From: Cyclostephanos tholiformis
Taxonomy: Eukaryota > Bacillariophyta > Thalassiosirophyceae > Thalassiosirales > Thalassiosiraceae
Direction: 5' to 3'
DNA: 10,380 nucleotides
NCBI GenBank assembly: GCA_036939975.1
Contig: JALLPB010001298.1
Location: 1 to 10,380, forward strand
The position numbers and the translations under genes were made by a program. Below, piece after piece: positions 1-10,380 of this stretch. Each line of letters begins with the position of its first letter. Positions within the stretch are counted from its first letter, which is position 1. The notes under the pieces were generated by a model. The model had not been told where the DNA came from and did not search any database. It was given only the letters and a program-made list of their open reading frames with translations.

Positions 1-2597
1 ACGCTGGTTTCAGCCTCGGAACATCGATGGAACACCACCGATGTTTCCGCGTGTACATAACAAGAACACGGGCGACAAGAGTGAGCGACACAGTGCATTT
101 CAAACATCAATACATCACAAATCCAACGATCTCACTGGAATCAATGGTCGTGGCGGCCGCTCAACAACTAGCGGTCGCACTAAAAGGCAATGTCCCGACC
201 GGAAACGACACGGCGGACGCGCTCACAAAGGTGAGCGAACTATTTACAAAAATAGCAGCACACAAACAAGCAGCTGCAACGGCGAAGGCAAACCGGAACA
301 CACTCCGCAGCAACCAAACGGCACAACAGATGACTCACTCTCCAAGGGTGGACGAATGCCCAATTTCAAGGGTGGCCACACCTCCAAGGGTGACAACTCA
401 ACCGGCTGATTGTCGCGTACCCAATGCAAACCCTCGGGAAGATTGTCGCGTGAGGGTGGAAAAGGGGCAGATTGAATCGCCCAGTGTGGGGGCACTGAAG
501 AGTGTTGAATTTATGACCGCAAGGAGACTACGATCCTCCCTCCGGCCAAATTACATCTCCCAGGATGAGGAGGACAGCGTCTCGCCACCCGAACGAAGGA
601 GGACACGCTCCCACACAGGCAGCGTAATGCAAGAAGCAATGCTGGCAAGCGTGGATGTATCCCAACCGAACTATATTGCATCGGAGGATATCGGCCTCCT
701 CAACTTCGCAAGCACCCGTACCAAAACAACATTCGAGATCACGCCGCAGCAACTGTCCCAGAGACGACTGCCCATGGAATGGTTCTGCGACATGGCAAAT
801 GCGGTGTTGGGAGACAATGGTGAATTGCTGGAGTACAAACACTTGATCGCCAATCCCAAAACAAGAGCGATCTGGACACAATCGTACGGGAATGAAATCG
901 GCCGATTGGCACAGGGCATGCCGGGTCGAAACACCAGCACCAACACAATCCTCTTCATCAAGAAGGATCAGGTTCCAAAGGAGTGGGCAAAGGACGTCAC
1001 ATATGGCCTTATCACCACCCTAATCAGACCTGAAAAAATAGACGAGCCAAACAGAACAAGGTTGGTGGCAGGCGGCAACCGAGTACATTATCCTGGCAAC
1101 GTAGGGACACCAACGGCCAACCTACTCACCGTAAAACTCCTCCTGAACAGCATCATCTCAACAGAGCACGCACGATTTATGACCATGGACATCAAGGATT
1201 TCTACCTAAATACCCCGATGGCACGCTACAAATACATGCGCCTACGCCTCGTGGACATGCCCGAGGACGTGATTGAGCACTACAAACTCCGCGAGATTGC
1301 AACCCCGGACGGCGCCATCTACTGCGAAATACAAAAGGGAATGTACGGCCTGCCACAGGCCGGAATCATTGCCCAGCAATTGTTGGAAGAGCGCCTCGCC
1401 AAGCACAGATATCGCCAAAGCACCACTACCCCAGGATTGTGGAAGCACGACACTCGCCCCATTTGTTTCAGCCTCGTTGTGGATGATTTTGGCGTCAAAT
1501 ATGTCGGAGAGGAGCATGCACAACACCTGTTGGAGACGATACGAAGTTATTATAAATGCTCAGCAGATTGGGAAGGGGAACGATATTGCGGACTCACCTT
1601 AAAGTGGGATTACGCCAACCGGAAGGTACATCTCTCGATGCCGGGATACATCGACAAAGTCCTCGCCCGTTTCCAACACCCGCATCCTACGAAGCCCCAA
1701 CACCAACCGTACCCCCACGTCAAAGTCAACTATGGTGCAAAGACACAATACGCGAAGGAGGTGGACAAATCTCCCCCCCTGGACAAGGCTGGCAAAAAGT
1801 TTATCCAGGAGGTCTGCGGAGTTTTCCTTTTCCTCGCACGAGGAGTCGATGGTGGTCTCCTCCCCCCCTCAGCGCCCTCTCGTCCCAACAATCAAGTCCG
1901 ATGGAAGAAACAATGAAATTAACAAAACAATTCCTCGATTACATGTCCACGATGGACAAGGCTATCCTCACCTTCAACGCGAGCAACATGGTCCTAGCCA
2001 TCCACAGCGATGCCTCGTACCTATCCGAGCCAAATGCACGGAGTCGGGCGGGCGGCCACATGTTTATGGCCGGCAACGAGGCCATCCCACGCAACAACGG
2101 AGCCGTCCTCAATATTTCCCAAATAATCAAGGCCGTCATGTCATCCGCGGCGGAGGCGGAGTTGGGCGCACTATTCATAAATGCAAAAGCAGCGGTATCG
2201 ATGTGACAAACACTCGTCAAACTCGGCCACCCCCAACCTCTAACCCCGATGCAAACAGACAATGCAACAGCGAACGCACTACTCACGAACAAAATCATGC
2301 CTAAAGCTTTGAAAGCCATGGACATGCGTTTCCACTGGCTGCGTTGCCGCAACGCCCAGGGTCAATTTCGGTATTATTGGCGACCGGGCACACAGAATCT
2401 AGCTGATTACTTCACGAAGCACCACCCAGCTAGCCATCACACAGCAGTCCGACCTACAATTCTGACAGCTGTAACAGACAAGGAATACTAAGCTATTTGC
2501 AACGTCACCAGGCAAGGCCAAGGCATCAGCAACTACGAATTCCTTTGTACAAAAATTACTCACTACTCCTAAGTTTCAAGCAGCAGCAGCAGCCTAA
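1..2597 (+). pseudogene. Degenerate Copia pol (end of integrase, RT, RNase H)
   Basis: This is the 3' part of pol from copy E1, recognised by alignment to the intact E2 pol. The frame is open from the window start to 1916 and covers the integrase C-terminus, the variable linker and the whole RT, including MDIKDFYLN near 1186-1212 and VVDDF near 1478-1492. A C-run at 1862-1868 is one base shorter than in E2 (tccccccctc against tcacccccctc), so the frame shifts and ends at a TGA at 1914-1916. RNase H continues in the next frame. There an arginine CGA of E2 (7971-7973) has become TGA at 2204-2206. A two-base deletion near 2488 creates TAA at 2489-2491, ahead of the ancestral stop at 2595-2597. 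RNase H residues (HSDASY, EAEL, TDNAT) are still recognisable. Three independent breaks make a sequencing artefact unlikely. Confidence 0.92.
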
Positions 2598-2601
2598 TCA
2601 C

Positions 2602-2614
2602 TACGGCAAGGGTG
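2602..2614 (+). other. Polypurine tract region of E1
   Basis: The short purine-rich stretch ggcaaggg lies just before the LTR and is identical to the one before the 3' LTR of E2. In LTR elements this site primes plus-strand DNA synthesis. Here it shows that the LTR at 2615 is preceded by E1 internal sequence and not by a genomic target site. Confidence 0.65.
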
Positions 2615-2647
2615 TGTTAGACCTACGGAATCCTAAGGCCTACTATT

Positions 2648-2672
2648 GGCGGGAAACCAATGGATTCCCGCC
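2648..2672. promoter_or_regulatory. U3 palindrome with paired E2F-like half-sites (middle LTR)
   Basis: GGCGGGAA and TTCCCGCC are perfect 8-base inverted arms, and the inner CCA/TGG extends the stem after one A-A mismatch. Each arm resembles the E2F/DP site TTTSSCGC, though on this copy the right arm reads aTTCCCGCC. It lies in U3, upstream of the predicted start of transcription. Binding by a cell-cycle factor is inference. Confidence 0.45.
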
Positions 2673-2799
2673 ATATTGGGACAATCCTTAAGTAAGTATT
2701 AGGCACACATTCTCCTATGAGAATACGGAAACAAGAAGTGAGAAAGGCCGTAATAAACCAACGACAAAATGCCATACTGGCGACCCACGATGCTAATAG

Positions 2800-2819
2800 G
2801 GACAATCTTAATATTGTCC
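2800..2819 (+). promoter_or_regulatory. Core promoter palindrome with degraded TATA (middle LTR)
   Basis: GGACAAT and ATTGTCC form 7-base inverted arms around cttaat. The TATA position reads tcttaata at 2806-2813. The same palindrome in the 3' LTR holds tataaata. Two substitutions separate them, so this copy probably has a weaker promoter. Confidence 0.45.
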
Positions 2820-2831
2820 GATAGTCTCATA

Positions 2832-2844
2832 ATTGATAAATATC
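2832..2844 (+). promoter_or_regulatory. Putative transcript 5' end and self-primer segment
   Basis: The 13 bases attgataaatatc are the exact reverse complement of the 13 bases that follow the LTR. They begin 26 nt after the start of the TATA-like position, so a transcript would start at or very near this segment. They lie in a block of more than 40 bases that is identical in both LTRs. In Tf1 the RNA 5' end folds back on the primer site and is cut to prime minus-strand synthesis, and the arrangement here allows the same. Priming would yield a strong-stop DNA of only about 38-51 nt. Confidence 0.5.
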
Positions 2845-2868
2845 CTTTACATCGACTACCAAGCTAGG

Positions 2869-2874
2869 ATGTGA
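2869..2874 (+). other. Start-stop uORF (ATG TGA) in the E2 leader
   Basis: Within the U5 part of the middle LTR, ATG is followed at once by TGA. It lies between the predicted transcript start and the gag ATG. The 3' LTR has ACG here, so this copy alone carries the start-stop. Such elements can stall ribosomes and lower translation of the downstream frame; that effect is inferred. Confidence 0.4.
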
Positions 2875-2882
2875 GTTCAGCA

Positions 2883-2895
2883 GATATTTATCAAT
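2883..2895 (+). other. Primer binding site, complementary to the element's own LTR
   Basis: gatatttatcaat starts at the first base after the LTR, exactly where a minus-strand primer must anneal. It does not begin with TGG, so it does not fit the 3' CCA end of a tRNA, and I see no match to the anticodon-stem half of initiator tRNA-Met used by Drosophila copia. It pairs perfectly over 13 bases with 2832-2844, with the primer 3' end falling on the first base of this site. Confidence 0.55.
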
Positions 2896-2963
2896 CCATC
2901 GCAAGATTAACCGACCGACCAGCACGGCACAGCGCCCTTGACCCCAAGTGAACGAGATTCTCC
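2896..2963 (+). other. Untranslated leader of E2
   Basis: This short, C-rich leader lies between the primer site and the gag start and contains accgaccgacc repeats. A stop in the gag frame at 2949-2951 fixes the gag start at the next ATG. Packaging or dimerisation signals would be expected here, but I cannot identify one. Confidence 0.5.
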
Positions 2964-4169
2964 ATGTCACCATCAAAGTCATTGGGAGCGTATGAAACGC
3001 TCATCAACCAACGGGACAAAATGACCCACCTAAATGGCGTCATCACACCCGAAGCCATCGATCGCCTCGAAGATGAACTCGGCGGCATTTTCACTATCAT
3101 AAAAATGCACCACTACGAGCAAGGCCAAAAGTACGGCCACCTTGCAAGCGCCATCCCCAAGGCAAAGTACCGTCTAGTCATCAACGACACGACGTGGATG
3201 CACACGGCACCAGCGGACCCCGGCCCCTACTCAGCCGCCGCCATGGTTGCCGGGACAACAGCAGCCCAACGCGAACAACTCGGCGCCGCCCACAAAGTGA
3301 CGGTCGACAACCACGCCAACTACCTCAAAGTAGAGGAGGCGGGAAAGGAGCTCATCCTGTACGCCGTCGGCGACGATGCACTCGCCCCGCTAAAGAAGCA
3401 ATACATTGGTTTTGGGGACGAAACCGTTCTCTCAATGATCGTCCATCTTCGCACAAAGACGGCGATCAAGATGACCACTGCCCAGAAGCACGAATACCGC
3501 ACAAACGGGTACAATGCCGTGTGGGATCCCCCAACGAGCATCACAGCGTACTTCTCGACGCTGGATCGCTTCCAAATCTCCCTGGAAGACCGCGGAATCG
3601 CGACAAGCGTGGCAGAAAAATGCATGGCCGCGGGTGCACAGATGTGGGCAAGTGAAATGTTCACTGAGGAACAGATGCTCGGATGGGAAAACAAGCCCAC
3701 GGCAGACCAAACGTGGACCAACTTGCAAGCCTACTTCACCGAAAAATGGCTCGAACGAAAGCAATATTCCACCACGACGGCGAAACAATCACGTTTCAAA
3801 GAGGCGGCTCTGGCAGCCCAGGAGAAAGAAGCAGCGGAAGCAGAGGGCGAAACACAGGCCATGCTATTCGCCATGTTACAGGAACAACACGACAAACAAA
3901 TCGCGACCATGGAAGCCGCCAACAAGGCCAACATGGCCGCCATGATGGAACGCATGAGTGCACTCGTGGCAGCGGGACAAAACAAAGACAAAGTTGTCCC
4001 GCCCGGCACAACACCGGCGGCCAGCGAACCAAAACGCCCACGCCCCGCAAAGCACCTTTGCCCCAACTGCAATAAGATGGTATTCCATAAACCCGCGGAC
4101 TGCTATGAACTTGAAGCCAACAGGGACAAACGTTACGTGGGTTGGAAGTCCGCGATCACCCCGGCTTGA
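2964..4169 (+). CDS. gag: Gag (capsid-nucleocapsid) of Copia element E2
   Basis: This 401-residue protein should assemble the cytoplasmic virus-like particle in which reverse transcription takes place. The N-terminal and central part (about residues 1-270) is the capsid-like region. Residues about 275-335 are rich in Ala, Glu, Gln and Met and look like a long helix or coiled coil. A basic stretch (KRPRPAKH) precedes a zinc knuckle with Cys366, Cys369, His375 and Cys380, spaced CX2CX5HX4C, one residue longer before His than the classic CX2CX4HX4C. The start at 2964 is the first ATG after an in-frame stop at 2949-2951; its context is weak (T at -3). The frame ends with TGA at 4167-4169, 21 residues after the last knuckle Cys, and pol continues in the same frame. 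No part of E1 or E3 in the window covers gag. Confidence 0.9.
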   Translation: MSPSKSLGAYETLINQRDKMTHLNGVITPEAIDRLEDELGGIFTIIKMHHYEQGQKYGHLASAIPKAKYRLVINDTTWMHTAPADPGPYSAAAMVAGTTAAQREQLGAAHKVTVDNHANYLKVEEAGKELILYAVGDDALAPLKKQYIGFGDETVLSMIVHLRTKTAIKMTTAQKHEYRTNGYNAVWDPPTSITAYFSTLDRFQISLEDRGIATSVAEKCMAAGAQMWASEMFTEEQMLGWENKPTADQTWTNLQAYFTEKWLERKQYSTTTAKQSRFKEAALAAQEKEAAEAEGETQAMLFAMLQEQHDKQIATMEAANKANMAAMMERMSALVAAGQNKDKVVPPGTTPAASEPKRPRPAKHLCPNCNKMVFHKPADCYELEANRDKRYVGWKSAITPA

Positions 4170-4181
4170 CAGGGACCGGGG
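4159..4181 (+). promoter_or_regulatory. GC hairpin enclosing the gag TGA stop
   Basis: CCCCGG (4159-4164) and CCGGGG (4176-4181) form a perfect 6-bp stem, and the 11-base loop contains the gag stop TGA at 4167-4169. The base after the stop is C, which is a leaky context for UGA in many eukaryotes. It may assist readthrough into pol. A structured element just downstream of the stop is the known retroviral arrangement; a stop inside the loop is not a standard one, so the role is speculative. Confidence 0.35.
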
Positions 4182-7100
4182 ACAACAGTAGTAATTGTAG
4201 ATGCAGCTAAACTAGTAACACAAACTGCCAAACACGAATACAACTACTGGTCCCCACTAGCCTGTCTAGTCGACGCACAGGAGGAAAATGAAACCAAGGA
4301 GGACAGTCTATTGACAGAACCCAAACCCGACATGATCTTGGCTGCACAACCAGGCACAAATCATCTGGGCAGGGTAGCGGCGCATTGGGCACGCAAGTTG
4401 GCAAACAGGAGGGGTAGAAAATCAGGTGTGTTAGATTCAGGAGCAACTTCTGGTGCAGGCCCGGCAGGGGATGCGGATGAACTAGATGACACGGGACAGC
4501 GATCTCACAAAACATTCATGTTCCCCGACGGCAGGACGGCATCAGCAACACAACAAATGATGCTGAGGCACAACCTTCGCGATGGAGCGCGGGTAATAAA
4601 CATTGTGCCGGGGATGCACACAACACTGATCAGCGTCCCAAAACTGGCCGACGAACGGTACACAACAGTATTCCGTGACAAGGTGGCGGAAATATTTGAC
4701 AACGACACTACTATTGTTATGTCAAACAAACTTCCCATCCTCACGGCCCCCCGCTGCAAAACAACCGGACTTTGGCGGCTCGACCTCAACCCTGAGACCA
4801 AAATAACGGATCCACCAAATGAAGACTCCACAGAAACCGCACACGTCATCTTCGACCTTCCCAGCGCCCGCCAATCATTCCTCTGGTACCACGCCGCGGC
4901 GGGGTTTCCTCCAAAAGAAACTTTCCTAAAAGCAGTTCACCGTGGCAACTACGCGACATGGCCAAAACTGACCACCCAACTGATCCATAAGTATTTTCCC
5001 GATTCGGATGAATCGATCAAGGGCCACATCAAAGGCCAACGGCAGGGAGTACGCTCCACGAAATTCAACCACGTTGCCCCCTACGACGACGATGACACTG
5101 ACGACGTCCAAATAAAATTCGGAACAAAAGAACCAGTGAAGGAACAAAGCGGCAAAGACAATTCCATATTCTGCCGTGTCACAGATCTCACCGAAACAAT
5201 TCACACAGATCAAACCGGTGCTTTCCCACACACATCCACCAGGGGCAACAGATATATTATGGTCGGCATCCATCTTGACGCCAACTATATTTTCGTCGAA
5301 CCAATGAAGAACAGAACAGAAGGCGAAATGATACGATCATACCAACGTATGATCGACAGGATGAAGCGAGCGGGACTCGGCCTCCGCGAGCACAAACTCG
5401 ACAATGAAGCGTCGGAGGCTTTCAAGGAGTGCATCAACCAAAATGGGATGAAGTATGAACTAGTACCGCCGGGAAACCACCGACGCAACCAAGCCGAACG
5501 CGCCATACAGACATTCAAGGCGCACTTCATCTCTATCCTCGCCGGAGTCGACGACAAGTTCCCACTTTCCCTCTGGTGCCAACTCCTCGAGCCGGCCGAA
5601 CTCACCTTAAATTTGTTACGGCAATCGCGGATAACCCCCAACATATCGGCGTATGCACATGTCCACGGTCCCCACGATTTCATGCGAAAACCAATGGCGC
5701 CGCTCGGCTGCGCGATCCATGCACACGTGAAACCTGACGACAGACGCACGTGGGATACGCGGTCCGATGCTGGTTTCAGCCTCGGAACATCGATGGAACA
5801 CCATCGATGTTTCCGCGTGTACATAACAAGAACACGAGCGACCAGAGTGAGCGACACAGTTCATTTCAAACATCAATACATCACAAATCCAACGATCTCA
5901 CCGGAATCAATGGTCGTGGCGGCCGCACAACAACTAGCGGTCGCACTAAAAGGCAATATCCCGGCCGGGAATGACACGGCGGACGCGCTCACAAAGGTGA
6001 GCGAACTGTTTACAAAAATAGCAGCACACAAGCAAGCTGCTGCAACGGCGAAGGCACAACGGCTCACACTCCAGAGCAACCAAATGACACAACAGACGAC
6101 TCACCTTCCAAGGGTGGACGAACGACCAATTCCAAGGGCGGCCACACATCCAAGGGTGACAACTCATCCGGGTGATTGTCGCGTACCCAACTCAACCCCC
6201 CTGGAAGATTGTCGCGTGCGGGTGGAAAAGGGGCAGATTGAATCGCCCAGTGTGGGGGCACCTAAGAGTGTTGAATTTATAACCACAAAGAGGCTCCGTT
6301 CCTTCCCCCGGCCAAATTACATCTCCCAGGACGAGGAAGCCAGCGTCTTCCCACCCGAACGAAGGAGGACACGCTCCCACACAGGCAGCGTAATGCAAGA
6401 GGCGATGCTGGCATGCGTGAATATATCCCAACCGAATTATATTGCGTTGGGGGATATCGGCCTCCGCAACTACCCACGCACCCAAACCAACACAACAGTT
6501 GAGATCACGCCGCAGCAACTGTCGATGAGACGACTGCCCATGAATCGGTCCTGCGAAATGGCAAATGCGGTGTTGGGAGACAATGGCGAATTACTGGAGT
6601 ACAAACAACTGATCGCCAATCCCAAAACAAGAGCGACCTGGGCACATTCGTACGGAAATGAAATCGGTCGTTTGGCTCAGGGCATGCCGGGTCGAAACAC
6701 CGGCACTAACACAATCCACTTCATCAAGAAATATCAGGTTCCAGAGGAGCGGGCTAGGGACGTCACGTACGGCCTTATCACCACCTTGATCAGACCTGAA
6801 AAAATTGACGAGCCCAACAGAACAAGGTTGGTGGCAGGCGGCGACCGAGTACATTATCCTGGCGACGCAGGGACTCCGACGGCCGACCTACTCACCGTAA
6901 AACTCCTCCTGAACAGCATCATATCCACAGAACACGCACGATTTATGACCATGGATATTAAGGACTTCTACCTCAATACTCCAATGGCACGCTATGAATA
7001 CATGCGCCTACGCCTCGCGGACATGCCCGAGGACGTGATCGAGCATTACAAACTCCGCGATATCGCGACCCCGGACGGCGCCATCTACTGTGAAATACGA

Positions 7101-8366
7101 AAGGGAATGTACGGACTGCCACAGGCCGGAATCATTGCTCAGCAATTGTTGGAAGAGCGCCTCGCCAAGCACGGATATCGCCAAAGCACCACGACCCCAG
7201 GATTGTGGAAGCACGACACTCGCCCCATTTGTTTCAGCCTCGTCGTGGACGATTTTGGCGTCAAATATGTCGGAGAGGAACATGCACATCACCTGTTGAA
7301 GACGATACGAAGCTATTACAAATGCTCGGCAGATTGGGAAGGGGAACGATATTGCGGACTCACATTGAAGTGGGATTACGCCAACCGGAAGGTACATCTC
7401 TCGATGCCGGGATACGTCAAAAAAGCCCTTGCCCGTTTCCAACACCCGCATCCTACGAAGCCCCAACACCAGCCGTATCCCCACGTCAAAATCAACTATG
7501 GTGCGAAGACACAATACGCTAAGGTGGCCGCCGAATCCCCCCCCCTCGACAAGGCTGGCAAAAAGTTTATCCAGGAGGTTTGCGGAGTTTTCCTGTTCCT
7601 TGCACGAGGAGTCGATGGCGGTCTCCTCACCCCCCTCAGCGCCCTCGCCTCCCAACAATCGAGTCCGACAGAGGAAACAATGAAATTAACAAAACAATTC
7701 CTCGACTACATGTCCACAATGGATGAGGCTATCCTCACCTTCAACGCAAGCGACATGGTCCTTGCCATCCACAGCGATGCCTCGTACCTATCCGAGCCAA
7801 ATGCCCGAAGCCGGGCGGGCGGCCACATGTTTATGGCCGGCAACGAGACCATCCCCCGAAACAACGGTGCCGTCCTCAATATTTCACAAATAATCAAGGC
7901 CGTCATGTCATCTGCGGCGGAGGCGGAGTTGGGCGCACTTTTCATTAATGCAAAGGCAGCGGTCTCAATGCGACATACACTCGTCGAACTCGGCCACCCT
8001 CAACCTCTCACCCCGATGCAAACAGACAATGCAACAGCGACCGCACTACTCACGAACAAAATAATGCCTAAGGCTTTGAAAGCCATGGACATGCGTTTCC
8101 ACTGGCTGCGTTGCCGCACCGCACAGGGTCAATTTCGATATTATTGGCGACCAGGCACACAGAATCTAGCTGATTACTTCACGAAGCACCACCCGGCTAG
8201 CCACCACACAGCAGTCCGACCTACAATTCTGACTGCTGTCACAGACAAGGAATATACTACACTATTTGCATCGTCACTAGGCAGGGCCAGGGCGTCAGCG
8301 ACCACAACTTCCTTTGTACAAAATTTACTCGCAACTCCCAAGTTTCAAGCGACAGCAGCAGCCTAA
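4170..8366 (+). CDS. pol: Pol polyprotein (protease-integrase-RT-RNase H) of E2
   Basis: The frame is fully open from the codon after the gag TGA to TAA at 8364-8366, giving 1398 residues, numbered here from that codon. Protease: LDSGATS with Asp89. Integrase: Asp347 (HTDQTG), Asp411 (LDNEAS) and Glu443 (QAER), so 31 residues lie between the last two where copia has 35; an upstream finger region has several His but no Cys. A linker of about 300 residues follows. RT: TRLVAGGD, Asp929 in MDIKDFYLN, GMYGLPQAG, and Asp1027-Asp1028 in VVDDF. RNase H: Asp1203, Glu1253, Asp1286 and Asp1335 (NLADYFTKHH). The order integrase then RT is that of Ty1/copia. Pol has the same frame as gag and no obvious start of its own, so it is probably made by readthrough of the TGA as a Gag-Pol fusion and then cut by the protease. 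All core catalytic residues are kept. Replication would occur in the cytoplasmic particle and integration in the nucleus. Confidence 0.93.
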   Translation, partial: QGPGTTVVIVDAAKLVTQTAKHEYNYWSPLACLVDAQEENETKEDSLLTEPKPDMILAAQPGTNHLGRVAAHWARKLANRRGRKSGVLDSGATSGAGPAGDADELDDTGQRSHKTFMFPDGRTASATQQMMLRHNLRDGARVINIVPGMHTTLISVPKLADERYTTVFRDKVAEIFDNDTTIVMSNKLPILTAPRCKTTGLWRLDLNPETKITDPPNEDSTETAHVIFDLPSARQSFLWYHAAAGFPPKETFLKAVHRGNYATWPKLTTQLIHKYFPDSDESIKGHIKGQRQGVRSTKFNHVAPYDDDDTDDVQIKFGTKEPVKEQSGKDNSIFCRVTDLTETIHTDQTGAFPHTSTRGNRYIMVGIHLDANYIFVEPMKNRTEGEMIRSYQRMIDRMKRAGLGLREHKLDNEASEAFKECINQNGMKYELVPPGNHRRNQAERAIQTFKAHFISILAGVDDKFPLSLWCQLLEPAELTLNLLRQSRITPNISAYAHVHGPHDFMRKPMAPLGCAIHAHVKPDDRRTWDTRSDAGFSLGTSMEHHRCFRVYITRTRATRVSDTVHFKHQYITNPTISPESMVVAAAQQLAVALKGNIPAGNDTADALTKVSELFTKIAAHKQAAATAKAQRLTLQSNQMTQQTTHLPRVDERPIPRAATHPRVTTHPGDCRVPNSTPLEDCRVRVEKGQIESPSVGAPKSVEFITTKRLRSFPRPNYISQDEEASVFPPERRRTRSHTGSVMQEAMLACVNISQPNYIALGDIGLRNYPRTQTNTTVEITPQQLSMRRLPMNRSCEMANAVLGDNGELLEYKQLIANPKTRATWAHSYGNEIGRLAQGMPGRNTGTNTIHFIKKYQVPEERARDVTYGLITTLIRPEKIDEPNRTRLVAGGDRVHYPGDAGTPTADLLTVKLLLNSIISTEHARFMTMDIKDFYLNTPMARYEYMRLRLADMPEDVIEHYKLRDIATPDGAIYCEIRKGMYGLPQAGIIAQQLLEERLAKHGYRQSTTTPGLWKHDTRPICFSLVVDDFGVKYVGEEHAHHLLKTIRSYYKCSADWEGERYCGLTLKWDYANRKVHLSMPGYVKKALARFQHPHPTKPQHQPYPHVKINYGAKTQYAKVAAESPPLDKAGKKFIQEVCGVFLFLARGVDGGLLTPLSALASQQSSPTEETMKLTKQFLDYMSTMDEAILTFNASDMVLAIHSDASYLSEPNARSRAGGHMFMAGNETIPRNNGAVLNISQIIKAVMSSAAEAELGALFINAKAAVSMRHTLVELGHPQPLTPMQTDNATATALLTNKIMPKALKAMDMRFHWLRCRTAQGQFRYYWRPGTQNLADYFTKHHPASHHTAVRPTILTAVTDKEYTTLFASSLGRARASATTTSFVQNLLATPKFQATAAA
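6108..6217 (+). repeat. In-frame short repeats in the integrase-RT linker
   Basis: CCAAGGG occurs three times (6108, 6132 and 6150) and GATTGTCGCGT twice (6174-6184 and 6207-6217). All spacings are multiples of three, so they encode repeated PRV/PRA and DCRV units. E1 has the same pattern at about 341-460. The stretch lies in the fast-evolving linker with no recognised domain; most likely it is a flexible spacer between integrase and RT. Confidence 0.6.
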
Positions 8367-8370
8367 TAAC

Positions 8371-8383
8371 TACGGCAAGGGTG
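8371..8383 (+). other. Polypurine tract region of E2
   Basis: ggcaaggg lies just before the 3' LTR, 5 bases after the pol stop, and is conserved in E1. It is the expected primer for plus-strand DNA synthesis. The purine run is short and interrupted by one C. Confidence 0.7.
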
Positions 8384-8418
8384 TGTTAGACCTACAGAAT
8401 CCTAAAAGGCCTACTATG

Positions 8419-8443
8419 GGCGGGAAACAAATGGTTTCCCGCC
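8419..8443. promoter_or_regulatory. U3 palindrome with paired E2F-like sites (3' LTR)
   Basis: GGCGGGAAAC and GTTTCCCGCC form perfect 10-base arms around a 5-base loop (aaatg). Both arms contain the full E2F-type core TTTCCCGC in opposite directions. The middle LTR has the same palindrome with two changes near the loop. Confidence 0.5.
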
Positions 8444-8570
8444 ATAATGGGACAATCCTTAAGTAAGTATTAGGCACACATTCGCCTATGAGAATACGAA
8501 AACGAGAAGTGAGAAAGGTCGTAATAAACCAACGACAAAATGCCATACTGGCGACCAACGATGCTAATAG

Positions 8571-8590
8571 GGACAATATAAATATTGTCC
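8571..8590 (+). promoter_or_regulatory. TATA box inside a palindrome (3' LTR)
   Basis: GGACAATAT and ATATTGTCC form 9-base arms around aa, and tataaata lies at 8577-8584. The self-primer segment starts 26 bases after the TATA start, as expected for a transcription start. U3 of the 3' LTR is copied into both LTRs of a new insertion, so this intact TATA would be inherited by offspring. Confidence 0.55.
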
Positions 8591-8653
8591 GATAGTCTCA
8601 TAATTGATAAATATCCTTTACATCGACTACAAAGCTAGGACGTGAGTTCAGCA

Positions 8654-8658
8654 GGGCT
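8654..8658 (+). other. Candidate right target-site duplication
   Basis: Copia integrases usually duplicate 5 bases of target. The five bases after the 3' LTR are gggct. The matching copy should precede the leftmost LTR, which is outside the window, so this is a prediction only. Confidence 0.3.
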
Positions 8659-10380
8659 ACGTCAGCAGCAAATGAATTTGGCCGCCTGGCCCAAGGACTG
8701 AAGGACGGACGAGTAACGGGAACAGACACCATCACCTTTATTTCCAAAACCCAAGTCCCAACCGAAAGAATAAAAGATGTAACATATGGAAGTTTCAACT
8801 GCGATTACAAACCGAACAAGGACGAAAAAGAACGCACAAGACTCATGGCCGGAGGAGACAGGATCAATTACCCCGACGACTGCGGGACCCCGACAGCAAA
8901 CATGACCCTGTTCAAAATATTAATAAACAGTGTCATCTCCACCCCAGGCGCAAAATGCTTCATGATGGACATAAAAGATTTTTACCTGAATACCCCGATG
9001 AAACGATCAGAGTACATGCGGCTAAAAATCTTGGACATCCCAGATGAGGTCATTGAACACTACAATTTGAAAGACTTAGTCACACAAGACGGATATGTGT
9101 ACTGCGAAATCAAATGCGGCATGTACGGCTTACCTCAGGCCGGATTAATAGCTCAAGAACTCCTGGAAAAGAGACTGGCAGGGTATGGCTACCACCAAAG
9201 CCAGATCATAAATGGACTCTGGACACACAAGACCAGACCCATATGTTTTTGTCTCTGCGTCGACGACTTCGCCGTGAAATATGTACAACAAGAAGATGCG
9301 GACCACTTAATCAATGCGATCAAGAAATATTACCCAATGACAGTTGATTGGAATGCCACAAAATATATTGGACTCACCATCGCATGGGATTATATCAACA
9401 GAAAAGTGAACATCCACATGCCAGGTTACCTCGAAAAAGCATTCACTCGATTCAAACACCAAAAGCCGACAAAACGTCAGAACTCACCGCATCCACATAC
9501 CATAACCCGTTACGGAGAGAGGACGCAATACGCTGAAGAGGAAGACACCTCCCCCCCGCTCTCAAAAGAAGACACCAAATTCGTGCAAGCAGTCGCAGGG
9601 ACCCTACTTTACTACGCAAGGGCCGTCGACGCAACAATCCTTCCAGCACTTAGTTCAATAGCCACCGAACAAGCCAAACCGACGCAACGAATGATGGCGA
9701 CAACAAAGCAATTGTTAGATTACTGTGCCTCACAAGAAGAAGCCATCATCACTTACCACGCCAGCAAAATGATATTAGCCGTCCATAGCGATGCCGGTTA
9801 CTGCAATGAAAAGAACAGCCGAAGCCGAGTGGGTGGACACTTTTTCCTCTCCAATGACGAACCGTTCCCCCCAAATAACGGTGCAGTCCTCACACAAGCG
9901 AATATTATCAAAGCAGTCATGTCATCTGCCGCAGAAGCAGAACTCGGAGCATTATTTTTAAACGCAAATAAGGCAGTATATCTCTGCCAAATACTCACGG
10001 AAATGGGACACCCACAACCGCAAACACCAATCCAGACAGATAACACAACAGCGGACGGGGTAATAAATAAGAAAATACAGCCAAAATGCACCAAGGCAAT
10101 GGACATGCGTTTTCATTGGCTCCGCGACCGCGAGGCACAGGGACAATTCAGAATCTACTGGCAACCAGGGAATACCAATTTGGCGGACTATTTTACGAAA
10201 CACCACCCCCCAGCCCACCATGCAAACGTCAGAGCAGAATTTTTAACTAGAGTCAAGGACCTAACTACAAGCAGATACTCAGGAAACCAAGGTCAGACGA
10301 ACCAAATCGCTGTCCTACAAGGGTGTGCTAGACAAGCTACTAAGGTAAGAGCTAGAACAGCGAATTTTAGTGATGGAGAA
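8656..10380 (+). CDS. pol: RT-RNase H part of E3 pol, interrupted 5' and open 3'
   Basis: The frame is open without a stop from the LTR boundary to the window end, 575 codons. Protein order matches E2: NEFGRLAQG at the start, TRLMAGGD, MDIKDFYLN (catalytic Asp at 8968-8970), GMYGLPQAG, VDDF (Asp codons 9262-9267), then RNase H with Asp at 9790-9792, Glu at 9940-9942, Asp at 10039-10041 and Asp at 10186-10188 in NLADYFTKHH. All RT and RNase H catalytic residues are kept, so E3 was intact or nearly so when the array inserted. The 5' end is broken by the insertion, so no protein is expected from this fragment. The 3' end runs into a possible polypurine tract and LTR near 10317 without meeting a stop. 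Confidence 0.88.
10317..10380 (+). repeat. Possible polypurine tract and start of the E3 3' LTR
   Basis: caagggtgtgctagac matches caagggtgtgttagac at the purine tract and LTR start of E2 with one change. By analogy the E3 LTR would begin at TGTGCTAG (10324) or TGCTAG (10326). No second copy is available in the window to confirm it. Confidence 0.4.

What the first reader, a model, noticed from the sequence alone, without database searches (positions are those of the whole stretch)
2832..2895. Copia element with a Tf1-like self-priming arrangement
The first 13 bases after the LTR (2883-2895) are the exact reverse complement of 2832-2844 inside the same LTR, and the pairing stops exactly at the LTR boundary. 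The LTR segment begins 26 nt downstream of the TATA position, so it should be the RNA 5' end. It is unchanged in the other LTR (8603-8615), within a block of more than 40 invariant bases, although the LTRs differ by about 5%. The site does not start with TGG and I see no tRNA match. Self-priming by the mRNA 5' end is established for Tf1/sushi elements of the Ty3/gypsy group; I do not know of it in Ty1/copia elements, so this could be an independent origin.
Basis: partly seen in the sequence, partly recalled or inferred. Interest (0 to 1): 0.87.

Follow-up and report, generated by a model that had tools for sequence, protein, structure and literature searches.

The report
Self-priming copia retrotransposons in a diatom
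In the genome of a likely diatom, jumping elements of the Ty1/copia type carry a short stretch near the predicted start of their RNA that pairs with the site where copying into DNA would begin, and in 21 of 24 copies examined the two partners match over at least their first eight letters although those letters differ widely between copies, so these elements likely prime their own copying instead of borrowing a cell's transfer RNA.

Summary
In detail: LTR bases 2832-2844 are the exact reverse complement of 2883-2895, the first 13 bases after the LTR. Of 24 copia copies whose 5' ends I read (this one included), 21 have such a pair anchored on the first base after the LTR; in three the LTR was not located. 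The pairs differ widely (15 distinct 12-mers in 18 elements tabulated), yet 205 of 216 positions are Watson-Crick, against at most 153 when sites are swapped. Positions 1-8 pair in 18 of 18, with two to four pair types each. The 3' LTR/flank junction gives at most 6 nt in 13 of 14 readable cases; the exception is a tandem copy with its own site. None of 29 host tRNA sequences fits better than chance (set incomplete). A CAT(A/T)A motif lies 15-17 nt from the arm's 3' end and may mark the RNA start. Self-priming by the RNA 5' end is the best explanation; start, cleavage and priming are inferred. Self-priming in Ty1/copia was predicted before for plant TAR elements (Houba, Osr-1); a likely diatom lineage with covariation across families appears new. 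A crude test did not find the Tf1 'pretzel'.

The parts
1..2614 (+). 3' part of a second copy of the same family (pol), lying head-to-tail and sharing the LTR at 2615-2882
   Evidence: 88-94% identical to the matching stretches up to 8405 (families D1, D2, D4); its pol is broken into pieces
2615..2882 (+). 5' LTR (268 bp, TGTTAG...TTCAGCA)
   Evidence: end from alignment with the 3' LTR; start set by the TG and by comparison with C40 (read by eye)
2826..2832 (+). CTCATAA motif, inferred transcription start (A at 2829, 16 nt before the arm's 3' end, inclusive)
   Evidence: CATWA with its A 15-17 nt (inclusive) from the arm's 3' end in 18 of 18 elements (no chance control was run)
2832..2844 (+). 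self-primer arm ATTGATAAATATC (inferred primer, 3' end at 2844)
   Evidence: exact reverse complement of 2883-2895; covariation
2845..2882 (+). 38-nt segment between the arm and the LTR end; would be the template of a very short minus-strand strong-stop DNA (inferred)
   Evidence: 28-56 nt across elements (C1169 measured from the nearer of its two arm copies)
2883..2895 (+). primer-binding site GATATTTATCAAT, first base after the LTR
2964..4169 (+). gag-like ORF, 401 aa, with a zinc-knuckle-like CX2CX5HX4C read by eye
   Evidence: no Pfam hit
4311..8366 (+). pol ORF, 1351 aa from the first listed TTG (true start unknown); SH3 domain of the integrase side before the reverse transcriptase RVT_2, as in Ty1/copia
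8374..8383 (+). probable polypurine tract (GGCAAGGGTG)
   Evidence: position just before the 3' LTR; inference from sequence
8384..8653 (+). 3' LTR (270 bp)
8603..8615 (+). same arm in the 3' LTR, unchanged; what follows this LTR does not pair with it

Best explanation
This is a Ty1/copia retrotransposon of a likely diatom whose RNA probably primes its own reverse transcription: a 13-base stretch near the predicted RNA 5' end (2832-2844) is exactly complementary to the first 13 bases after the LTR (2883-2895), and 21 of 24 copies examined in the same genome, this one included, have such a pair, many with quite different letters. Shown: the pairing, its anchoring on the LTR end, the co-variation and the lack of a match among the tested tRNAs. 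Inferred: (1) transcription starts at the A of CTCATAA (2829), so the RNA begins with 3 unpaired bases and then the 13-base arm; (2) the arm folds back on the site; (3) the element's RNase H cuts after 2844, leaving a primer of about 16 nt whose 3' end abuts the LTR boundary; (4) reverse transcriptase extends it through the LTR end, giving a strong-stop DNA of only about 38 nt; (5) because the primer stays joined to the minus strand, plus-strand synthesis copies it into the next element's site, so the site is rewritten from the primer and the two drift together.
For: Exact 13-nt pair on the LTR boundary. LTR ends were fixed by 5'/3' LTR alignment, without using the arms, in 14 elements, and all 14 have an anchored complement: 13 or 14 nt in 7, 9-12 in 5, 8 in 2. 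Shuffled sites: of 16 elements, 12 are matched by 0 of 3000 shuffles, C1321 and C359 by 1, C734 by 16, C1169 by 21. Across 18 elements 205 of 216 positions are Watson-Crick; swapping sites gives a mean of 106.3 and a maximum of 153 in 10000 tries; positions 1-8 pair in 18 of 18 with 2-4 pair types each; 15 of 18 arms are distinct. C1496 (12 nt) and C1407 (13 nt) came on top. Arms are replaced between RT clades. Complement length peaks at offset 0: 15 of 18 with 9 nt or more, 2 of 18 at offset -1, none from -2 to -12. The 3' LTR/flank junction gives at most 6 nt in 13 of 14 readable cases; the exception, C359 with 12, is a tandem copy followed by its own site. tRNA matches to 19 of the 21 sites are 8-10 of 13, as for shuffled sites. 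CATWA lies 15-17 nt from the arm end in 18 of 18.
Against: No transcript 5' end, cleavage product or cDNA was seen. In one search each arm was picked as the best partner of its own site, so the swap control favours the true pairs; the shuffle and 3' LTR controls, which also search for the best match, do not share this bias. Predicted folding of the window leader is only modestly better than shuffles (z -2.45 for 102 nt, -1.34 for 136 nt). One of the two extra Tf1 pretzel duplexes was tested and is no better than shuffles. Three of 24 elements (C831, C873, C660) gave no accepted site and no located LTR. C734 keeps only 8 nt, apparently through a deletion; C1169 has 8 exact (11 of 13), and its other possible LTR end, followed by bases with an N, gives no match. 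Seven of the 21 LTR ends (C359, C419, C1447, C1438, C1450, C1496, C1407) were set by homology or by the arm itself. C1407 also holds a second 13-nt inverted repeat elsewhere, so single long matches do arise. C40 and C734 were found with a query that included the arms.
Confidence: 0.9

Rival explanations
1. Reverse transcription is primed by a host tRNA, whole or half, and the LTR match is incidental.
For: tRNA priming is the stated rule for the family (PMC8515867, passages). Only 29 distinct tRNA sequences covering 21 anticodon labels were tested, so some tRNAs are missing.
Against: The best match of any of 19 sites to any tested tRNA is 8-10 of 13, no better than shuffled sites. Sites differ between families while each matches its own LTR, which a fixed tRNA cannot explain. 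The window site lacks TGG.
Confidence: 0.03
2. The pair forms an RNA hairpin with another job (packaging, dimerisation, translation control), and something else primes.
For: Covariation shows that the pairing matters, not what it does; the hairpin is predicted by folding.
Against: The pair is anchored on the first base after the LTR, where a primer must sit, and its 5' side lies at a nearly fixed distance from a start-like motif. No alternative primer was found.
Confidence: 0.06
3. The match is a chance inverted repeat in one AT-rich LTR.
For: The window site is AT-rich (11 of 13).
Against: 0 of 3000 shuffles; 21 of 24 elements have a pair, with many different sequences.
Confidence: 0.005

Closest known systems
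Tf1/sushi group of Ty3/gypsy (Tf1 of fission yeast)
   Same: Site directly after the 5' LTR is complementary to a stretch at the start of the RNA; the first 11 bases of Tf1 RNA pair with the site and are cut off by RNase H (PMC7175516, passages).
   Different: This is Ty1/copia by domain order; the pair is mostly 12-13 nt and probably starts about 3 nt inside the RNA; the extra pretzel duplexes described for Tf1 (PMC10085805, passages) were not found by a crude test.
Plant TAR lineage of Ty1/copia (Houba, Osr-1)
   Same: Ty1/copia elements predicted to self-prime, by a complement of at least 10 bp between the 5' LTR and the region 0-5 bp after it (PMC6317226, passages).
   Different: Plant lineage; reported as a prediction.
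Fungal GalEa copia elements with a Conserved Hairpin Site
   Same: Ty1/copia elements lacking a tRNA-type site right after the LTR (PMC5445492, passages).
   Different: Their site is a palindrome including the LTR's last A, and the authors found no LTR sequence complementary to it.
Diatom CoDi copia elements
   Same: Likely host group; diatom LTR elements form diatom-specific lineages (PMC2806351, passages).
   Different: Membership was not tested. Term counts in that paper's main text gave none for tRNA, priming or 'primer binding'.

Membership tests
Ty1/copia (Pseudoviridae) | Reverse transcriptase of the RVT_2 type, integrase before reverse transcriptase | tested here: met
   SH3_retrovirus at 464-521, then RVT_2 at 839-1021 of the pol ORF; RVT_2 E 3.3e-7, 30.6 bits, one bit under its cut-off of 31.6; most of the close homologues listed carry PF07727; the integrase core itself was not hit by Pfam
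Ty1/copia (Pseudoviridae) | Primed by a host tRNA (ICTV profile, PMC8515867, passages) | tested here: inconclusive
   No tested tRNA matches above chance, but the tRNA set is incomplete. The profile says the site is 'usually' complementary to initiator tRNA-Met, so this lowers typicality, not membership by protein
Tf1/sushi (Ty3/gypsy chromoviruses) | Ty3/gypsy domain order (integrase after reverse transcriptase) | tested here: not met
Self-priming mechanism (as in Tf1) | LTR stretch exactly complementary to the site starting at the LTR end | tested here: met
Self-priming mechanism (as in Tf1) | Primer stretch is the RNA 5' end | tested here: inconclusive
   Only a CATWA motif 15-17 nt from the arm end supports it; no transcript data
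Self-priming mechanism (as in Tf1) | RNase H cleavage releases the primer | not testable with these tools
   needs biochemistry
Self-priming mechanism (as in Tf1) | Pretzel: two further duplexes beside the primer duplex | tested here: inconclusive
   Duplex between the LTR loop and the bases after the site: longest unbroken pairing 3-7 nt, equalled by 51-200 of 200 shuffles in the 18 elements. Duplex inside the LTR loop: 3-8 nt, listed without a control
Plant TAR lineage | Phylogenetic placement by RT, RH and INT | not tested
   no plant TAR sequences available here
Diatom CoDi lineages | Phylogenetic placement by RT | not tested
   no labelled CoDi sequences here; four Cyclotella cryptica proteins (CCRYP names) at 62-64% identity are among the 120 homologues listed
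Fungal GalEa Conserved Hairpin Site | 9-bp palindrome including the LTR's final A, no complement in the LTR | tested here: not met
   complement in the LTR present; sites such as TTGGTGCATAAAA are not such palindromes (by eye)

The most novel reading that the evidence does not exclude
Self-priming is the standard way of starting reverse transcription in the whole radiation of copia elements in this diatom, independent of Tf1/sushi. Because each new site is copied from the primer, the primer sequence is free to drift and be replaced, which has produced many different self-primers, all set at 15-17 nt from an initiator-like start.
Probability: 0.55. Interest if true: 0.75.

Novelty: new variant of a known kind. 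Interest (0 to 1): 0.64.

Why it matters
Ty1/copia elements are described as primed by host tRNA, usually initiator tRNA-Met (PMC8515867, passages). Here many families in one genome appear to carry their own primer, which would free them from host tRNAs and, by inference, from host control through tRNA fragments. Co-varying natural primer/site pairs give ready material to test whether the site is rewritten from the primer at each cycle and how RNase H measures the cut.

Tried and rejected
tRNA priming was tested against 29 distinct host tRNA sequences and found no better than shuffles. One pretzel duplex was tested and not supported. The U5 hairpin inside the window leader is interrupted in the window's own 3' LTR (by eye) and differs in relatives. 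Relatives in other species: viral contigs, genome contigs and phages gave none, so every DNA comparison is within one genome. Literature: searches listed no paper whose title or abstract start reports self-priming in diatom elements. Lists 43 (20 of 224) and 60 (20 of 44) were capped. The two papers holding self-priming, retrotransposon and diatom were checked by passages. Of the eight papers, five were opened by passages and three not at all. Only open-licence PMC papers were searched. C1078 and C1168 were found through the arm pattern; C1168 reads as an LTR without a site and C1078 as a decayed site; both were left out of all counts because they were chosen by the arm. C873 has a weak candidate (8 exact, 11 of 13), not counted because its LTR end is unknown.

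Full report
What is in the window. The window holds a complete Ty1/copia-type element: 5' LTR 2615-2882, gag-like ORF 2964-4169, pol ORF 4311-8366, 3' LTR 8384-8653. Pfam finds SH3_retrovirus before RVT_2 in pol, the copia order (RVT_2 is one bit under its cut-off, E 3.3e-7). Upstream, 1-2614 is the 3' part of a second copy of the same family that shares the LTR at 2615-2882. Downstream, from 8654, lies the pol of a more distant copia element (58% identical). The genome is a 25-Mb, 1566-contig assembly. A silicon transporter scores 687 bits in it, and four of the 120 listed protein homologues carry Cyclotella cryptica (CCRYP) names, so the host is most likely a diatom; that is an inference, and I recall that other silica-forming algae also have such transporters.

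The observation. LTR bases 2832-2844 and bases 2883-2895 are exact reverse complements, and the LTR ends at 2882 by LTR-LTR alignment. Shuffling the 20 bases after the LTR gave no equal match in 3000 tries.

Relatives. A protein search of the genome listed 93 RT matches, some of them pieces of one element; 83 of 337 candidates were scored, so this is a lower bound. I read the 5' region of 24 elements (and the window); six further stretches lay beyond contig ends. C40 and C734 had been found by a DNA query that included the arms; the others were chosen by RT. In 14 of the 24 the LTR end could be set by aligning the 5' and 3' LTRs, without looking at the arms: window, C40, C734, C1542, C1321, C1330, C1521, C1479, C233, C1395, C1169, C1426, C1556 and C553. 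All 14 have an anchored reverse complement in the LTR: 13 or 14 nt in window, C40, C1542, C1521, C1479, C1426 and C1556; 12 in C233; 11 in C1395; 10 in C1321 and C1330; 9 in C553, whose arm was read from its 3' LTR because the contig begins inside the 5' arm (by eye); 8 in C734, apparently cut by a deletion inside the site, and 8 in C1169. C1169 has two possible LTR ends; the other one is followed by bases with an N and gives no match. Seven more have the pair with an LTR end set by homology or by the arm itself: C419 12, C1447 13, C359 10, C1438 12, C1450 8, C1496 12, C1407 13. Three of 24 (C831, C873, C660) gave no accepted pair, and their LTRs were not located. So 21 of 24 are positive and 3 unresolved. 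Many of these elements are related, so the 21 are not independent events.

Covariation. In the 18 elements tabulated, 205 of 216 positions (12 per element) are Watson-Crick pairs. Giving each element another's site yields a mean of 106.3 and a maximum of 153 in 10000 permutations. Each arm was chosen there as the best partner of its own site, which favours the true pairs in this control. Positions 1-8 from the LTR boundary pair in 18 of 18, and each of them shows two to four pair types. There are 15 distinct 12-base arms. On an RT tree of 16 elements (C40 and C734 are not in it) the sites fall into unlike sequences between groups: GATATTTATC/GTTATTTATC (100/100 support), TTGGTGCATA/TTGGTAAGCA (100/100), GTGATTAC- (93/93), GTCGTAATTA alone, TACCTCCTAG/TACTTAGTTA (100/100) and GAGATTAAGA/GTTCTAAGTA/GTCGAAGTAA (100/100). 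The simplest single case is window against C40: one arm base and its partner differ together.

Controls. Shuffled sites: of 16 elements, 12 are matched by 0 of 3000 shuffles, C1321 and C359 by 1, C734 by 16 and C1169 by 21. Sliding the start of the site shows that the match is tied to the LTR end: 15 of 18 elements have 9 nt or more at offset 0, 2 of 18 at -1, none from -2 to -12; the decline at positive offsets is the tail of the same match. At the 3' LTR, followed by flank, the anchored match is at most 6 nt in 13 of 14 readable elements. The exception is C359 (12 nt), where the second LTR is followed by another internal region with its own site. In the other 4 of 18 no 3' LTR end could be read. 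tRNA test: 30 tRNA loci gave 29 distinct sequences with 21 anticodon labels; the best match to each of 19 sites is 8-10 of 13, equalled or exceeded by 10 to 100 of 100 shuffled sites. C553 and C1407 were not tested against tRNAs. His, Phe, Trp, Val and several other tRNAs were not in the set.

Start of the RNA. It is present only in the 3' LTR of the window, and I see no TATA at a fixed distance in the relatives. A better sign is CAT(A/T)A: its A lies 15 (2 elements), 16 (12) or 17 nt (4), inclusive, from the arm's 3' end in 18 of 18 elements; I ran no chance control for it. I read this as an initiator-like start; that reading is inference. It would give a primer of 15-17 nt, of which mostly the last 12-13 pair.

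Mechanism. Established for Tf1 (PMC7175516, passages): the first 11 RNA bases pair with the site, RNase H cuts between 11 and 12, and the fragment primes. Here the primer's 3' end would be at 2844 and the first DNA base would copy the LTR's last base. The segment left to copy before the cut is 38 nt in the window and 28-56 nt across the elements. [quoted passage not shown] If that holds here, plus-strand synthesis copies the primer into the new element's site, which would explain why pairs stay matched while their letters change.

Against. No RNA or cDNA evidence exists here. RNA folding of the window leader predicts the hairpin, but its energy is only modestly below shuffles. Of the two additional duplexes of the Tf1 pretzel (PMC10085805, passages), one was tested and is no better than shuffles; the other was listed without a control. 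C1407 holds a second 13-nt inverted repeat away from its LTR end. All DNA comparisons come from one genome, because scans of viral, prokaryotic and phage collections found no relative.

Prior work. Self-priming was predicted for the plant Ty1/copia lineage TAR, and proposed earlier for Houba and Osr-1 (PMC6317226, passages). Fungal GalEa copia elements lack a tRNA site and have a palindromic hairpin site with no LTR complement (PMC5445492, passages). The passages seen of the diatom CoDi paper (PMC2806351) do not discuss priming. My searches listed no report of self-priming in diatom elements; they cover open-licence PMC papers only, and two lists were capped (43, 60).

Verdict. It is a new variant of a known kind: a copia lineage, probably diatom, in which self-priming appears general among the families examined.

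Noticed in passing
1-8653: Two copies of the family lie head-to-tail sharing one LTR, with RT proteins 92-93% alike: tandem arrangement or an assembly chimaera.
   Followed up: partly
8654-10380: The array is followed directly by the RT/RNase H region of another, 58% identical copia element, as if inserted in it; no target-site duplication could be read because the left end is off-window.
   Followed up: no
L097 (C359:50-851): C359 also has an LTR followed by a second internal region with its own 12-nt primer site, another tandem-like arrangement.
   Followed up: partly
L105 and L079 (C1169, around 12440-12510): The LTR end of C1169 carries a partial tandem duplication of the arm region (two AATTAACTTCGAC copies) with an N in the assembly.
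   Followed up: partly
window 2845-2848 and relatives: The bases right after the arm are often CTT(T) and the LTR end is often GTTTAGCA; four elements of the GTGATTAC group share a possible CTGTTT:AAGCGG pairing beyond the site.
   Followed up: no
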